A stretch of 64,000 nt of DNA. Origin: Comamonadaceae bacterium. Lineage in GTDB: Bacteria > Pseudomonadota > Gammaproteobacteria > Burkholderiales > Burkholderiaceae_C. Positions 33,262 to 38,734 of this stretch are shown here, in pieces. The stretch covers positions 1 to 64,000 of the forward strand of contig CANEXF010000012.1 in assembly GCA_947443645.1 (NCBI GenBank), in the 5' to 3' direction. The position numbers and the translations under genes are program-made. Under the pieces are notes generated by a model. It ran no database searches. It saw nothing but the letters and a program-made list of their open reading frames with translations, and had not been told where the DNA came from. Numbering within the stretch: the first letter of the stretch is position 1; every line of letters starts with the position of its first letter.

Positions 33262-33681
33262 ATGCCAACAACCATTCACGTCGACGTTGTCAGCGCAGAA
33301 GAGTCCATCTTCTCCGGTGAAGCGAAATTTGTGGCCTTGCCTGGCGAAGCCGGCGAGCTGGGTATCTACCCGCGTCACACCCCGCTGATCACCCGCATCA
33401 AGCCGGGCGCCGTGCGCATTGAAAAAGCCGACGGCACGGAAGAGTTTGTATTCGTGGCCGGTGGCCTGCTTGAAGTGCAACCGCATCGCGTGACGGTGTT
33501 GAGTGATACCGCCATTCGTGGCAAGGATCTTGACGAAGCCAAGGCGACGGCAGCAAGAGCGGCGGCTGAAGAAGCGCTGAAAAACGCCAAAAGCGATATA
33601 GATATCGCGATGGCCCAGTCCGAGCTGGCTGTGATGGCCGCTCAGATTGCAGCGCTGCGCAAATACCGCCACAGCAAATAA
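33262..33681 (+). CDS. atpC: ATP synthase F1 subunit epsilon
   Basis: The 139-residue subunit has the N-terminal beta-sandwich ([20 protein letters not shown], then [14 protein letters not shown]) and a C-terminal two-helix part that can inhibit ATP hydrolysis. It is the last gene of the operon and is followed by a strong terminator. Confidence 0.96.
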
Positions 33682-33715
33682 GACTGAGCAGCCCGTTTAT
33701 ACGGGCCGCGTCTAC

Positions 33716-33749
33716 AAAAAGCCTCTGCGTGCGAACCCAGAGGCTTTTT
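33716..33749. terminator. Bidirectional terminator after atpC
   Basis: AAAAAGCCTCTG, a loop of about 10 bases, and CAGAGGCTTTTT form a strong hairpin. It lies between atpC and the convergent erythromycin-esterase-like gene and can serve both. Confidence 0.9.
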
Positions 33750-33760
33750 ATTTGTCTGGC

Positions 33761-35122
33761 TCAGACGCCGCTGGGATATGTCTCGGGCGCTTCTGGCGAG
33801 GACCAGTGCAAGCCTATGTCCAAGGGTTCCAGCGCGCGCGTTTCATCGATATGGATCATGGCGTCGAATTGCTGGTCAAGCCGGGTATGAAAGTAGTGAC
33901 TCTGCCTCTCGCTGCCCGGCATGTAAATCACGCCAATCGCGCGTTGCAGCCGGGGCTCACGCAGTGCGTTGAGCAAAGCCCGGTTGTTTTCAAGAAGGAG
34001 CATGAAGCGCTTGATTCCAACCTGGTGAAAGAGCGCCTCGTAACTTCCATGCAAGCCGGGTCTGACCCTGCGATGCAAAGCCGGGCCATCCCACTCTGTG
34101 GCCGCAGTCACCATGCCGTGATAGGTGCTGAAGCCTATAAGGACGGCGTCGCCGCTGTAGCGTTCGCGCATCAGCTGGCCAACGTTCCATTCACCCCGCT
34201 CACCCATTTCGGTAGCGCCTGCGTCACCGAGATGTGAGTTGTGAGCCCATACAGCCATGCGAGCCGCCACGCCGTGACGGGACAGGTGTCGCTCAAGCTC
34301 TTGTAGTGTTTCGACCATGTGGCTGTCTCGCAAATTCCATGAGGACACGCGCGAGTGAAACATCTCGCGGTAATACTCCTCCGCGTTCATCACCAGGCGG
34401 GCGTTTTGCTGCGCATAAAACAGCTCGTCCGAATCGCCATTTGCGAACAGCGACGCGCTACTCCGCCGCATCTCCGCCAATTGGGCGACCACCTCGTCTT
34501 CGCAGCTCTTGCCAATACCCCAGGCCGCCGCATAGCCGTAGGCCTGCGAGCTGCCTCCGACATGGTCAAAGCAGGCGTAACGCTGACGAGCGCGCAGCGC
34601 TGCTGCTGGATCTTTCTGGTCCAGATAGGAAAGGACGGCCTGCATAGACGAGAACAGGCTGTAAAGATCCATTCCGTAAAAGCCGACCTGTCGCTGTGCA
34701 ACTTGTGAGCGGTTGTGATCGCGCAGCCACTCGACAAAATCACGCACGACGGTGTTACGCCACATCCAGCCTGGGAAGCGTTGAAAGCCGGCCAGCGCGG
34801 CGTCAGCATTCGCGTCATCGCCCACGCCGCGCACATAGCGGTTCACGCGCCAGGCATCTGGCCAGTCGGCTTCGACGGCGACGGCCGTAAACCCCTTTTC
34901 GACAATCAGCCGTTTGGTGATTTCGGCGCGTTCCTGGTAAAACTCATGCGTGCCGTGCGAGGCCTCGCCAAGCAACGCAAAGCGCGCATCACCAATCAGC
35001 TCAAGCAAGGGCGAATAGTCCGAAGCATGACCCGACAAGGGTCCGGCGTTGGCGCGCAGCGCATTGAGCACTTCGCTGTCTGCCTGGATTGGCTGATGAG
35101 GACGGGGCGTGCCTAGCTTCAC
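33761..35122 (-). CDS. Erythromycin-esterase-family protein
   Basis: The 453-residue product matches the erythromycin esterase superfamily (EreA/EreB, Bcr135-136 type): LGEASHGTHEFYQERAE near residues 51-67 and VEADWPDA near 83-90 hold the active-site acids and histidines. Most family members outside resistance plasmids have no known substrate, and nothing here shows macrolide esterase activity. Its ATG overlaps the phosphoribosyltransferase stop by 4 bases, so it is the third gene of a coupled trio with a FNR-type box upstream. Confidence 0.9.
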   Translation of the reverse strand: MKLGTPRPHQPIQADSEVLNALRANAGPLSGHASDYSPLLELIGDARFALLGEASHGTHEFYQERAEITKRLIVEKGFTAVAVEADWPDAWRVNRYVRGVGDDANADAALAGFQRFPGWMWRNTVVRDFVEWLRDHNRSQVAQRQVGFYGMDLYSLFSSMQAVLSYLDQKDPAAALRARQRYACFDHVGGSSQAYGYAAAWGIGKSCEDEVVAQLAEMRRSSASLFANGDSDELFYAQQNARLVMNAEEYYREMFHSRVSSWNLRDSHMVETLQELERHLSRHGVAARMAVWAHNSHLGDAGATEMGERGEWNVGQLMRERYSGDAVLIGFSTYHGMVTAATEWDGPALHRRVRPGLHGSYEALFHQVGIKRFMLLLENNRALLNALREPRLQRAIGVIYMPGSERQSHYFHTRLDQQFDAMIHIDETRALEPLDIGLHWSSPEAPETYPSGV

Positions 35123-35766
35123 GGTAGCTCCTTCTTACTGGCCAAGGCCAGCAAAGTGCCGACCTCGCCATCGCTGACTTGCTCGAAATCGTCATACCAA
35201 AGACCGACCGCATGAAAGGGCGAGGGCGTTGTCACACACACCAGCTCGTCGACTTCTGCTCGCAGGCTGGCCGCGGTTTCTGGCGCAGCGACAGGCACCG
35301 CCACCACAATGCGTGCCGCACCCTGCTGGTGGGCCGCAAGCGCTGCCGCCCGCATGGTGGAGCCCGTTGCCAGGCCGTCATCGACCAGAATCACAGTACG
35401 GCCGTGCAGATCCAGTGGTGGTCTGCTGCCTCTATACAGGCGCTCGCGGCGCTCGATTTCCAGCAGCTCACGGGCCACCACAGCCTCCACCTCGGCCGGA
35501 TCAAGATGCAGCAAGGCTGCGTCAGGGTTCATCACGCGCACACCGCCGGTGGCAATCGCGCCCATGGCGTACTCGGGGTGGTGCGGTGCGCCGAGCTTGC
35601 GCACCAGAAATACGTCAAGCGGCGCGTTCAATGCGCCGGCCACCTCAAAGCCCACCGGAACACCGCCGCGCGGCAGTGCCAGCACCAGCAGGCCAGATTG
35701 ATGACGGTAGGCGCTCAGCAAGCCGGCCAGCCTTTTGCCGGCTTCGCGCCGGTTGTGGAATTTCAT
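35119..35766 (-). CDS. Phosphoribosyltransferase-family protein (COG1926-like)
   Basis: The 215-residue product has a type I phosphoribosyltransferase fold: LALPRGGVPVGFEVA near residues 28-42 and the PRPP loop VILVDDGLATGST (125-137). The hood region is long and does not match purine or pyrimidine enzymes, so the base or other acceptor is unknown. It overlaps both neighbours by 4 bases. In M. tuberculosis, similar domains are fused to a hydrolase or to an erythromycin-esterase domain, as I recall for Rv0571c and Rv2030c. Confidence 0.88.
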   Translation of the reverse strand: MKFHNRREAGKRLAGLLSAYRHQSGLLVLALPRGGVPVGFEVAGALNAPLDVFLVRKLGAPHHPEYAMGAIATGGVRVMNPDAALLHLDPAEVEAVVARELLEIERRERLYRGSRPPLDLHGRTVILVDDGLATGSTMRAAALAAHQQGAARIVVAVPVAAPETAASLRAEVDELVCVTTPSPFHAVGLWYDDFEQVSDGEVGTLLALASKKELP

Positions 35767-36455
35767 GGTCGCTCCAGTGACAATGGCTGCGCTGCCGGCC
35801 TCAGCAGGTATTTGGTAAACCAGTCCGCTGCCAGTCGTGCGACTTCCTCCATCGCGCCTGGCTCCTCAAACAAATGGCTTGCCCCAGGCACAATGCAAAG
35901 CTGCTTTTCAGCCGGGAAGTCTTCAAACGCGACGCGGTTGAGCGCAAGCACATCCTCATCGTTGCCGCCGACAATCAGCAACACCGCGGCACTTACCGTG
36001 TCACGTTGCGCCGATGGCACAAGGTCAGGTCGCCCGCCGCGCGACACCACGGCCGCAACCCGGCGACCCAAATGTGCGGCTGCGGCCAATGCGGCCGCAC
36101 TGCCGGTGCTGGCTCCGAAGTAGCCCAAGCTGAGTTTGCCCAGCGCTGCGTGCTGATTAACCCACTGGGTTGCGCCCTCAAGCCGCTGTGTCAGCAAGCC
36201 GATGTCAAAGCGGTATTCAAGCGTGTGCGCGTCGCGGCGCTCTTCCTGTGGCGTGAGCAGGTCGAACAACAGTGTTGCCAATCCTGCATGGTGGAGTTTG
36301 CTGGCAACAAAGCTATTGCGCGGGCTCAGGCGAGTGCTCCCGCTACCATGCGCAAACAGCACCAGGCCGGCGGGATTGTCGGGCAGGCTCAGCAAGCCGG
36401 GAAGGCCCATCGTTCCTGCGGTTATTTGAACTTCTTGTTGATGGAAAGGGCTCAT
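35763..36455 (-). CDS. Alpha/beta hydrolase (dienelactone-hydrolase-like)
   Basis: The 230-residue cytoplasmic protein has an alpha/beta-hydrolase fold with the nucleophile elbow GASTGS (Ser116), an acid in VGGNDEDV (about Asp166) and the catalytic His in PGASHLF (His194). The oxyanion segment is FAHGSGS. I chose the ATG at 36455 (MSPFHQQEV); the frame extends 15 residues further. It is the first gene of the trio, and its substrate is unknown. Confidence 0.87.
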   Translation of the reverse strand: MSPFHQQEVQITAGTMGLPGLLSLPDNPAGLVLFAHGSGSTRLSPRNSFVASKLHHAGLATLLFDLLTPQEERRDAHTLEYRFDIGLLTQRLEGATQWVNQHAALGKLSLGYFGASTGSAAALAAAAHLGRRVAAVVSRGGRPDLVPSAQRDTVSAAVLLIVGGNDEDVLALNRVAFEDFPAEKQLCIVPGASHLFEEPGAMEEVARLAADWFTKYLLRPAAQPLSLERP

Positions 36456-36547
36456 TTTGTTAGTCCATAGTGCAGACAACATTGAGAAGGCAGAGCGCAA
36501 GTCTAGGATGAAGTCGTGGGGCCGTGCATGCGCAATGGGCGCAGCGC

Positions 36548-36561
36548 TTGATCTGAATCAA
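36548..36561 (-). promoter_or_regulatory. Perfect FNR/Anr-type box upstream of the trio
   Basis: TTGATCTGAATCAA matches the FNR consensus TTGAT-N4-ATCAA exactly. Its centre is about 99 bases upstream of the hydrolase ATG. If it acts as an activator site at -41.5, transcription would start near 36513. The only genes downstream on that strand are the hydrolase, phosphoribosyltransferase and esterase-like genes; the gene on the other side ends there. Confidence 0.7.
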
Positions 36562-36656: not shown

Positions 36657-37190
36657 TCAGCCGATGAAGGGCTCGTCAGGCAGCTCGTTTTTTTGCCGGG
36701 CATTACCGCTTGAAGGGAAATGCGCGACCAGCAGCTCAGTCACTTCGTCAACGGCCTGCATCAGGCCATGGTCAAACTGACCGTCACGAAAAGTCGCGCC
36801 CATGCGCTGCGTCAGGGCATGCCACTGCAGCGGCGCGACATGCCTGGCCAAACCGCGGTCCGCGACGATTTCTATGGCGCGCTCGGCGAGTTGCAGGTAA
36901 ATCAGCACGCCATTGTTGAGCTCGGTGTCCCAGACGCGCAGCTTGCCAAACAGCGCCACGGCACGCTCGCGCACCAGCTGGTCAAGGCTGCCGCTGCTGT
37001 CCAGCCGAATCAGGTAACTCATGGGCAGCGCGGCCTCCACGCAAATTCTTATTTGACCGCTATGGCGGTGTTCGCTGGCAGCGACCCGCTGGCTCAGCTG
37101 CTCCAGCAGGTCTGGCCCCAAGGCGCGACGCGCATCGGACGCGTCCAGCCACAGGTGCTTGAGCATGCGTTGGGCCTTGTAAAACATCAT
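36657..37190 (-). CDS. TPM-domain protein, short form
   Basis: The 177-residue protein has a TPM domain (the TLP18.3/Psb32/MOLO-1 fold) from about residue 25 to 150: SGQIRICVEAALPM, then VALFGKLRVWDTELNNGVLI and ERAIEIVADRGLARHV. It has no signal peptide and no membrane segment. The ATG at 37190 lies 20 bases after the larger TPM gene. The function is unknown; such pairs often follow lemA. Confidence 0.82.
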   Translation of the reverse strand: MMFYKAQRMLKHLWLDASDARRALGPDLLEQLSQRVAASEHRHSGQIRICVEAALPMSYLIRLDSSGSLDQLVRERAVALFGKLRVWDTELNNGVLIYLQLAERAIEIVADRGLARHVAPLQWHALTQRMGATFRDGQFDHGLMQAVDEVTELLVAHFPSSGNARQKNELPDEPFIG

Positions 37191-37209
37191 GAGGTCATGG
37201 CTCCCATGC

Positions 37210-38127
37210 TTACCACTTGCCCGAGGCGCCGCCGCCGCCAAAGTCACCACCGCCGCCACTGCTGAAGCCACCACCACCACCCCAGCCGCTGTTGCTGCCG
37301 CGCCCACCCCAGGAACTGCCGCCACGACCCATGCTTGCCAGGGACGTCAGACTGCTAAAGAGGCCAACCACCAGTGCAAGCGCCGCCGCCGCAATCGCCA
37401 GCAACAGACTGCTCGTGAACAGCCATGCCAGCAGGCCTGCCGCTGCGCCTGTGGCCAGAGCGCCGGTCTTGCGCCCGAGCAGGCCTGTCAGCAGGCGCGC
37501 AGCAAACGGCACCACAAAAAATACAAACACCGCCAGGTCAGTCCACCTGAAACCGGCCACGACGGACGGCGAGTTATCGGATGCCGGCTCGCCGGCCGGC
37601 AAGGGAAGGTTCTCACCGCTGATGCGCGCCATGATCTGATCCGCCGCGGCGTTCAGACCACCGGCAAAGTCGCCCTGCCTGAAGCGCGGCACCATGGCGT
37701 TGTCAATGATCTGTCTGGCCGCCAGATCTGGGATGGCGCCTTCCAGCGTCTTGGTCGTGGCAATGCGCATTTGGCGGTCGCTTTTGGCAACCAGCAGCAG
37801 CAAGCCGTCGCCTATGTCTTTTCGCCCAATCTTCCAGCTGTCGCCCACACGCTGCGCGTAAGAGGCGATGTCTTCAGGCTGGGTGCTGGCCACCATCAAC
37901 ACCACGATCTGCGCCCCGCGACGCTTCTCGAAAGCCGTGAGCTTGGCGTCCAGCGCCGCGCGCTGTGTGCTGTCCAGGGTTGCGGTGGTGTCAATCACAT
38001 GGGCGTTCAGTGCCGGTATGGCCTGCAGCGTCTGCGTCTGCGCCAGCACAGGAGCGAACGCGGAAAAAATTGCAGCCGCTATAAAAAACAGAGCTGCTCG
38101 CGCCCGTTGAATGGGGGCTGGGTGCAC
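37210..38127 (-). CDS. TPM-domain membrane protein (YgcG-like)
   Basis: The 305-residue protein has a signal peptide, a periplasmic TPM domain (about residues 35-165: KRRGAQIVVLMVAST, DGLLLLVAKSDRQMRIATTK), two or more membrane segments and a Gly/Ser-rich C-terminal tail ending GGGASGKW. I prefer the GTG at 38127, 7 bases after the lemA stop, because the longer frame runs well into lemA. The lemA-TPM-TPM order is common in proteobacteria. The role is unknown, possibly envelope protein quality. Confidence 0.85.
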   Translation of the reverse strand: MHPAPIQRARAALFFIAAAIFSAFAPVLAQTQTLQAIPALNAHVIDTTATLDSTQRAALDAKLTAFEKRRGAQIVVLMVASTQPEDIASYAQRVGDSWKIGRKDIGDGLLLLVAKSDRQMRIATTKTLEGAIPDLAARQIIDNAMVPRFRQGDFAGGLNAAADQIMARISGENLPLPAGEPASDNSPSVVAGFRWTDLAVFVFFVVPFAARLLTGLLGRKTGALATGAAAGLLAWLFTSSLLLAIAAAALALVVGLFSSLTSLASMGRGGSSWGGRGSNSGWGGGGGFSSGGGGDFGGGGASGKW

Positions 38128-38134
38128 TTTTTGC

Positions 38135-38734
38135 CTATTTCTTGTCGAAGTTGACGACCGGTGGCGTGGCAATCTGCGCTTCGTTCTGCACCGTGAAATT
38201 GGGCTTGACGCTGTAGCCAAAGAGCATGGCCGTCAGGTTGCTTGGAAAGCTGCGTGCCAGCACGTTGTAGGCCTGCACGGCCTGTATGTAGCGGTTGCGC
38301 GCCACCGTGATGCGGTTCTCTGTGCCTTCGAGTTGCACGCGCAGATCCTGAAAGCCCTGGTTGGCCTTCAGATTGGGATAGTTTTCGGTCACGACCAGCA
38401 GGCGTGACAGAGCAGAACTCAACTCGCCTTGCGCGGCTTGAAATTTGCTGAAAGCCACCGGATCATTAAGCGTTTCGGGCGTGACCTGGACAGAAGTCGC
38501 CTTGGCCCTGGCTTCAACCACCCGCGCGAGCGTCTCTTGCTCGAAAGCCGCTTCGCCTTTGACGGTCGCCACGATGTTGGGCACCAGGTCAGCGCGCCGC
38601 TGGTACTGGTTAAGCACTTCGGACTTGGCTGAATTGGTCTGTTCGTCCAGGCGCTGGAAGTCGTTGTAACCGCAGCCTGTCAGCAGCGCACTGACGAAGC
38701 CGATGAGCAGCAAAGCGAAAAACCGGTATTTCAT
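38135..38734 (-). CDS. lemA: LemA-family lipoprotein
   Basis: The 199-residue product has a lipobox leader (LLTGCGYNDFQ, Cys21) and the LemA helical pattern: QTNSAKSEVLNQYQRRADLV, then VTENYPNLKANQGFQDLRVQ and a NRYIQAVQAYN helix. LemA proteins are membrane-bound helical bundles of unclear role. It is the first gene of the set with the two TPM genes. Confidence 0.92.
   Translation of the reverse strand: MKYRFFALLLIGFVSALLTGCGYNDFQRLDEQTNSAKSEVLNQYQRRADLVPNIVATVKGEAAFEQETLARVVEARAKATSVQVTPETLNDPVAFSKFQAAQGELSSALSRLLVVTENYPNLKANQGFQDLRVQLEGTENRITVARNRYIQAVQAYNVLARSFPSNLTAMLFGYSVKPNFTVQNEAQIATPPVVNFDKK

What the first reader, a model, noticed from the sequence alone, without database searches (positions are those of the whole stretch)
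33761..36561. FNR-box operon of alpha/beta hydrolase, phosphoribosyltransferase and erythromycin-esterase-like protein: a likely hypoxia module of unknown chemistry
Seen: three genes with 4-base overlaps on both joints, and a perfect FNR-type palindrome (TTGATCTGAATCAA, 36548-36561) about 99 bases upstream of the first ATG. No other gene lies downstream of that box. Known, from memory: in Mycobacterium tuberculosis Rv2030c joins a phosphoribosyltransferase and an erythromycin-esterase-type domain, Rv0571c joins a phosphoribosyltransferase to a hydrolase domain, and both belong to the hypoxia-induced DosR set. Inference: the same three domains form one functional unit, switched on at low oxygen by unrelated regulators in two phyla. 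The unit may make and break a ribosylated or ester compound.
Basis: partly seen in the sequence, partly recalled or inferred. Interest (0 to 1): 0.75.

Follow-up and report, generated by a model that had tools for sequence, protein, structure and literature searches.

The report
Low-oxygen-boxed three-enzyme stress module
Three enzymes of unknown joint task sit in one operon behind a low-oxygen switch; distant bacteria keep the same three together, sometimes fused into one protein, which points to an undescribed step of how cells ride out oxygen shortage.

Summary
Three overlapping genes (alpha/beta hydrolase, phosphoribosyltransferase [PRT], erythromycin-esterase-like protein [ERE]) form a closed operon: a perfect FNR palindrome in front, a strong terminator-like hairpin behind. 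The genome has two FNR-type regulators and 12 perfect boxes (about 1-2 expected); one precedes a COX1 oxidase gene beside an E1-E2 ATPase gene.

The functional-unit inference is strongly supported. The trio recurs in five gene orders in many phyla. All three pairwise fusions exist. One 883-residue polypeptide carries all three domains (Salipiger; four Rhizobium records match its whole length). Catalytic residues are kept.

The low-oxygen inference is supported but not universal: a box precedes 5 of 15 operonic trios of the window's family (4 perfect, 1 with one mismatch). A box (1 perfect, 3 with one mismatch) lies at the same place before all four Rhizobium fusions, which are two lineages. 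Cupriavidus and Paraburkholderia hold the genes in clusters with boxes. In mycobacteria, published DosR targets include such PRT proteins.

No chemistry is shown. I favour a PRPP-using quiescence pathway: the hydrolases open an ester or lactone, the PRT adds or removes ribose-5-phosphate. A PCMT-ERE fusion suggests damage repair as a rival. No paper found describes the trio.

The parts
36548..36561 (.). FNR-type palindrome TTGATCTGAATCAA
   Evidence: exact match; one of 12 perfect sites in the genome; present with one mismatch and the same spacing to a TAGACT block in the nearest relative L046
36501..36506 (-). possible -10 element TAGACT, which would put the box centre about 61 nt upstream of the start of transcription (class I position; inference)
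   Evidence: block around TCCTAGACT kept between window and L046 while the DNA upstream of the box has diverged; not found by the promoter scan
35763..36455 (-). alpha/beta hydrolase, dienelactone-hydrolase-like; putative triad Ser116, Asp166, His194
   Evidence: Pfam DLH, PDB 2o2g 1.4e-66, 96-98% kept in 55 sequences
35119..35766 (-). type I phosphoribosyltransferase with intact PRPP loop (Asp129-Asp130, Ala133-Thr134-Gly135)
   Evidence: Pfam Pribosyltran, PDB 1wd5 2e-43, kept in all 85 sequences
33761..35122 (-). erythromycin-esterase-family protein; conserved Glu53, His56, Arg65, Glu84, His294
   Evidence: Pfam PF05139 3.8e-132, PDB 2qgm/2rad, 98-100% kept in 122 sequences
33714..33751 (-). 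terminator-like hairpin behind the operon, before the convergent gene ending at 33681
   Evidence: fold -25.9 kcal/mol, z -4.4, 0 of 200 shuffles as good; not listed by the terminator scan, which allows loops of 3-8

Best explanation
An FNR-controlled operon for a three-enzyme module that bacteria switch on when oxygen runs short and growth stops. Shown: the three genes form one closed unit with a perfect FNR box; the same three families stay together across phyla as operons, as every kind of pair fusion and as one triple-domain protein; their catalytic residues are intact. Inferred: FNR activates the operon from a site near -61. Inferred, weaker: the module is one pathway centred on PRPP or ribose-5-phosphate, in which the two hydrolases open an ester or lactone and the phosphoribosyltransferase adds (or removes) a 5-phosphoribosyl group on the freed compound, as salvage, storage or repair of something that builds up in non-growing cells. 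The substrate is unknown.
For: Unit: in 299 family genomes ERE occurs in 30, hydrolase in 58, PRT in 89; 26 of the 30 ERE genomes have a PRT and 21 a hydrolase; 17 of 34 ERE places have a PRT within 4 kb, 12 a hydrolase, 11 both (tally 108). 28 complete trios were compared, in five linear orders plus divergent forms, with distance correlations of 0.82, 0.55 and 0.59, each above 1000 permutations (shared species history is not removed). Fusions: PRT-ERE, ERE-hydrolase, PRT-hydrolase; triple PRT-hydrolase-ERE of 883 aa in Salipiger, with 5 of 183 plasmid records, itself included, covering at least 80% of it. Regulation: 12 perfect boxes in the genome, one of them before a COX1 gene next to an E1-E2 ATPase gene; two CRP/FNR proteins with C-x2-C-x5-C; perfect box before 4 of the 7 same-strand trios of the 299-genome sample; 3 perfect boxes in 153 upstream regions against at most 1 for any of 19 permuted half-sites, window not counted; 5 against 0 in 493 kb of family loci; box 47-49 nt before the match start of all 4 Rhizobium fusions; Cupriavidus oxalaticus cluster with perfect boxes, FtsH, GroEL, NAPRTase, Usp. 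Published: Rv2030c and Rv0571c in the DosR set (PMC4410610, PMC5309233, PMC2275270, passages).
Against: 10 of 15 operonic trios of the family have no box within one mismatch, nor do the 10 trios outside it in the same call. 16 of 34 ERE places in the family have neither partner within 4 kb; in the class sample 10 of the 15 fetched ERE loci show neither (some contigs are short). A PRPP synthetase lies beside the module in only 1 of 169 loci and NAPRTase in 3. The four Rhizobium loci are two lineages, three of the four boxes have one mismatch, and the Salipiger fusion has its nearest one-mismatch box 379 nt upstream. The Fisher tests are not corrected for kinship. In mycobacterial loci a GGGAC-N4-GTCCC site stands before 2 of 6 PRT-ERE fusions, but one permuted control occurs 3 times in the same DNA. 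At least two of the 12 genome boxes lie inside genes (L006, L011). No expression or enzyme data for this operon.
Confidence: 0.65

Rival explanations
1. Damage-repair module of quiescent cells, not tied to oxygen as such: the esterase and hydrolase remove adducts from proteins or metabolites, the PRT handles the ribose part; the FNR box is one of several ways to time it.
For: ERE is also fused to a protein-L-isoaspartate methyltransferase domain (PCMT) in 10 loci here (five verified by Pfam; five read from their N-termini). All 10 and the three triple-fusion EREs fall into one clade of 16, support 1.0 under midpoint rooting. PfkB, Usp, BON and HSP20 head one neighbour tally, with only 3-4 of 110 neighbours each. 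Rv0571c appears in carbon starvation too (PMC12090744, passages).
Against: FNR and FixK-type boxes and DosR membership point to oxygen in separate lineages.
Confidence: 0.3
2. Detoxification or antibiotic resistance: ERE opens macrolide-like lactones and the PRT inactivates a compound by ribosylation.
For: ERE belongs to PF05139 and keeps the catalytic Glu and His residues.
Against: Scores 44, 19 and 18 bits against the EreB, EreD and EreA models with cut-offs of 750, 800 and 750; no plain resistance family among the 25 commonest neighbour families shown in either tally.
Confidence: 0.07
3. The box is bound by another CRP/FNR-type protein or serves nitric oxide sensing, or is a relic.
For: Box is missing in most relatives of the family; three CRP-type proteins in the genome.
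Against: Two of the three have the FNR cysteine pattern; the site and its spacing to a possible -10 are kept in the nearest relative.
Confidence: 0.15

Closest known systems
Rv2030c and Rv0571c of Mycobacterium tuberculosis (DosR regulon)
   Same: Rv2030c joins PRT and erythromycin-esterase domains (PMC4410610, passages); Rv0571c is listed as a putative PRT with a DosR motif (PMC5309233, PMC2275270, passages). Related mycobacteria have PRT-ERE fusions (6 of 6 loci), and one of the 6 genomes a PRT-hydrolase fusion.
   Different: There, two separate proteins under DosR; here three genes in one operon behind an FNR box. Both are called not yet characterised in PMC5309233.
Low-oxygen-activated (lxa) locus of Burkholderia
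   Same: Low-oxygen cluster with universal stress proteins, phosphofructokinase, a cell-division-related metallopeptidase and, in its extended form, nicotinate phosphoribosyltransferase, PpsA and an esterase (PMC4981469, passages). The Cupriavidus cluster L212 has FtsH, GroEL, NAPRTase, a PPDK-type enzyme, Usp, PRT, ERE and hydrolase.
   Different: The passages seen name no erythromycin esterase; whether lxa holds the trio was not tested. In the window the trio stands alone beside the ATP synthase genes (my reading).
Erythromycin esterases EreA/EreB/EreD
   Same: Pfam PF05139 and catalytic Glu/His pattern.
   Different: Far below the resistance-enzyme cut-offs.
Ter-type stress systems with a PRT thought to make a nucleoside-like compound (recalled, not looked up)
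   Same: A PRT in a stress gene cluster.
   Different: PRTase_2 matches only at 17 bits, under its cut-off of 28.8; the operon holds no other gene.

Membership tests
FNR regulon | TTGAT-N4-ATCAA site in front of the first gene | tested here: met
   perfect site, centre about 99 nt before ATG 36455
FNR regulon | an oxygen-sensing FNR protein in the genome | tested here: met
   two CRP/FNR proteins with C-x2-C-x5-C and a later Cys, and ExxSR in the recognition helix (motifs recalled; oxygen sensing itself not tested)
FNR regulon | box conserved before orthologous operons | tested here: inconclusive
   5 of 15 family trios within one mismatch
FNR regulon | induction at low oxygen that depends on fnr | not testable with these tools
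   no expression data
Type I phosphoribosyltransferases | PRPP loop with two acidic residues | tested here: met
   Asp129-Asp130 in all 85 sequences, Pfam over cut-off
Macrolide-resistance erythromycin esterases | score over the EreA/EreB/EreD cut-off | tested here: not met
   18-44 bits against 750-800
Erythro_esteras domain family PF05139 | full-length profile match with catalytic Glu/His | tested here: met
   441.8 bits over profile 1-358; Glu53, His56, His294 at 98-100% (roles recalled from EreB)
DosR-type PRT-ERE proteins | PRT and ERE in one protein | tested here: not met
   separate overlapping genes in the window; fused in Polaromonas KJH.2, same genus by the kinship column

The most novel reading that the evidence does not exclude
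An undescribed three-enzyme, PRPP-centred pathway is a recurrent part of bacterial quiescence at low oxygen. It has been put together several times, as operons, pair fusions and a single triple-domain protein, and wired separately to FNR, FixK-type and DosR regulators in Proteobacteria and Actinobacteria. It makes, frees or repairs a ribose-phosphate or ester compound that matters only when growth stops.
Probability: 0.45. Interest if true: 0.85.

Novelty: new variant of a known kind. Interest (0 to 1): 0.66.

Why it matters
The PRT/ERE proteins of the tubercle bacillus dormancy regulon are listed as not yet characterised in the review seen here. A three-gene operon and a natural triple fusion in harmless soil and root bacteria give a tractable set in which one substrate would explain three families at once, and test whether unrelated oxygen sensors in separate lineages drive the same quiescence chemistry.

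Tried and rejected
Resistance enzyme: rejected as a member. Stress-gene neighbourhood as proof of hypoxia: weak. 110 neighbours, nearly all outside the window's family (one locus, L094, is Comamonadaceae by name), gave 4 PfkB, 4 Usp, 3 BON, 3 HSP20; 118 neighbours in the family gave mostly unrelated genes (DsbB 7). The first alignment used 110 of 157 listed references, the second 118 of 143; both lists come from a crude gene caller. DosR boxes near the mycobacterial fusions: only weak full-length matches, core palindrome in 2 of 6, control not clean. PRPP synthetase next to the trio looked like a clue (L211) but is 1 of 169 loci. A box in Cupriavidus sp. KK10 (L217:12442) cannot be placed: FtsH there matches only from residue 137 on, in two frames, so the box may lie inside or before that gene. 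A one-mismatch site 72 nt before a Legionella trio (L123) lies in AT-rich DNA and is not counted. Structure of a natural PRT-ERE fusion: mean pLDDT 71.8, pTM 0.58 from 9 sequences, too poor to read domain contacts; no fold search was run. The promoter scan found no site on the operon's strand. L052 is counted among the 15 trios although its PRT match is a fragment.

Full report
Observation. The three genes, the 4-base overlaps and the perfect palindrome are present as described. The operon is closed: the upstream TPM-domain gene (36657-37325, same strand; Pfam) ends 95 nt before the box, and a hairpin (33714-33751; -25.9 kcal/mol, z -4.4) stands between the ERE stop and the convergent gene 33262-33681. 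The perfect box is the only one in the window. A first-order model expects 1.3e-4 in about 200 nt and 2.2 in the genome; the genome has 12. One precedes a COX1 gene beside an E1-E2 ATPase gene; others lie near a COX2 gene, a hemerythrin-domain gene, a PHB regulator and a BON/Hsp20/PhaC/FNR region; at least two lie inside genes (L006, L011) and look like chance. Two CRP/FNR proteins carry C-x2-C-x5-C.

What the proteins are. ERE: PF05139, 441.8 bits; nearest structures 2qgm and 2rad, EreC only at 9e-4. PRT: PF00156; nearest 1wd5. Hydrolase: DLH-like; nearest 2o2g. In alignments of 122 ERE, 85 PRT and 55 hydrolase sequences the presumed catalytic residues are kept in 96-100%; their roles are recalled from EreB, PRTs and alpha/beta hydrolases.

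One unit. In 299 genomes of the family, ERE genomes are enriched for PRT (26 of 30 against 63 of 269) and hydrolase (21 of 30 against 37 of 269), and PRT genomes for hydrolase (50 of 89 against 8 of 210) (not corrected for kinship). Of 34 ERE places, 11 have both partners within 4 kb, 6 PRT only, 1 hydrolase only, 16 neither. In a class sample of 369 genomes 17 have ERE at E 1e-60; of the 16 besides the window 15 were fetched (G376 was not), and 4 of these have both partners, 1 the hydrolase only, 10 neither. Among the 80 named loci kept of 156 found, the trio occurs in Polaromonas, Ramlibacter, Ktedonosporobacter, Gemmatimonadetes, Acidobacteria, Armatimonadetes, Thermomicrobiales, Planctomycetota, Chthoniobacter and others; many loci have PRT-ERE only or ERE alone. 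Orders seen: HYD-PRT-ERE, PRT-ERE-HYD, ERE-HYD-PRT, ERE-PRT-HYD and PRT-HYD-ERE. Fusions by frame: PRT-ERE in 6 of 6 mycobacterial loci, Sphaerisporangium, an acidobacterium, a Thermomicrobiales bacterium and Polaromonas KJH.2; ERE-hydrolase in a Bryobacterales bacterium; PRT-hydrolase in two family genomes and Mycolicibacterium stellerae (Pfam for some). The 883-aa Salipiger protein is PRT-hydrolase-ERE; four Rhizobium records cover all of it at 67-68% identity, one of them in two pieces. In the ERE tree the triple fusions and the mycobacterial-rhodococcal fusions form separate supported clades, so the parts were joined more than once.

Regulation. Of 15 operonic trios in the family (window included) 4 have a perfect box (window, G070, G254, G032) and 1 has one mismatch (L046); G070 and G254 share a genus. 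The other 10 have at best two mismatches. Of the 7 same-strand trios of the 299-genome sample alone, 4 have a perfect box (G000, G070, G254, G032; not G027, G274, G198). Across 153 upstream regions without the window (a few empty or short), TTGAT gives 3 perfect and 7 within one mismatch; the best of 19 permuted half-sites gives 1 and 3. In 493 kb of family loci TTGAT gives 5, all controls 0, 3 of the 5 before trios; in 880 kb of the other loci the excess is small (5 against at most 3). Window and L046 keep the box, its spacing and a TAGACT block while the DNA upstream of the box has diverged. All four Rhizobium triple fusions have TTGAT-N4-(A/G)TCAA 47-49 nt before the match start, one perfect and three with one mismatch, from two lineages. 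R. lentis has two BON genes, GroEL, FtsH and a CRP/FNR-type gene around the fusion. Cupriavidus oxalaticus has ERE behind FtsH and before GroEL and NAPRTase, with a perfect box 275 nt upstream of FtsH, and PRT, hydrolase, BON and Usp within about 15 kb; Cupriavidus sp. KK10 has the same genes within about 17 kb and a perfect box that cannot be placed with certainty. Paraburkholderia phymatum has HYD-PRT-ERE with two one-mismatch boxes between a divergent PRPP synthetase gene and the trio; the boxes are over 800 nt from the hydrolase match and a further short frame may lie between.

Literature. PMC4410610, PMC5309233, PMC2275270, PMC12090744, PMC4981469, PMC9104464, PMC6127331, PMC3759415, PMC9733578 and PMC3966863 were seen as passages only. 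Rv2030c is described as PRT plus erythromycin-esterase and hypoxia-induced; Rv0571c as a putative PRT with a DosR motif. Extended lxa in B. contaminans holds PncB, an esterase, PpsA, a metallopeptidase and phosphofructokinase. A search for the three families together gave 0 papers, as did ERE, PRT, low oxygen and FNR; the listings of wider searches showed none on the trio by title or abstract start. The library lacks most subscription papers, so this is not proof that the module is undescribed.

Mechanism. Shown: operon, box, conserved catalytic residues, co-inheritance and fusion. Inferred: FNR activation; joint pathway. The pathway proposal (ester or lactone opening by two hydrolases, phosphoribosyl transfer by the PRT) rests on family chemistry and is worth about 0.35 by itself. 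The PCMT-ERE fusions make repair of damaged molecules the main rival.

Noticed in passing
L150, L153, L154, L155, L192-L196, L207: Erythromycin-esterase domain fused behind a protein-L-isoaspartate O-methyltransferase (PCMT) domain; several rhizobial plasmid records under the match are annotated so. The second ERE of G254 is of this kind, with a perfect FNR box just behind it (L150:4677).
   Followed up: partly
L126 (own genome, C10:1-15000): PhaC, BON, Hsp20, AAA/APH and an FNR-type regulator around a perfect FNR box: resembles a small low-oxygen stress cluster away from the trio.
   Followed up: partly
L212, L217: Cupriavidus plasmid clusters with FtsH-ERE-GroEL-NAPRTase, PRT-BON, PhaC, Usp and perfect FNR boxes, alike to the Burkholderia lxa locus; the records carry almost no annotation.
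   Followed up: partly
window 36657-38734: LemA gene (Pfam) and two TPM-domain genes directly upstream on the same strand; all three also lie upstream of the trio in the nearest relative L046.
   Followed up: partly
L163-L185 and others: 27 of 67 hydrolase places in the family lie within 4 kb of a PRT without an ERE near: the pair is commoner than the trio.
   Followed up: partly
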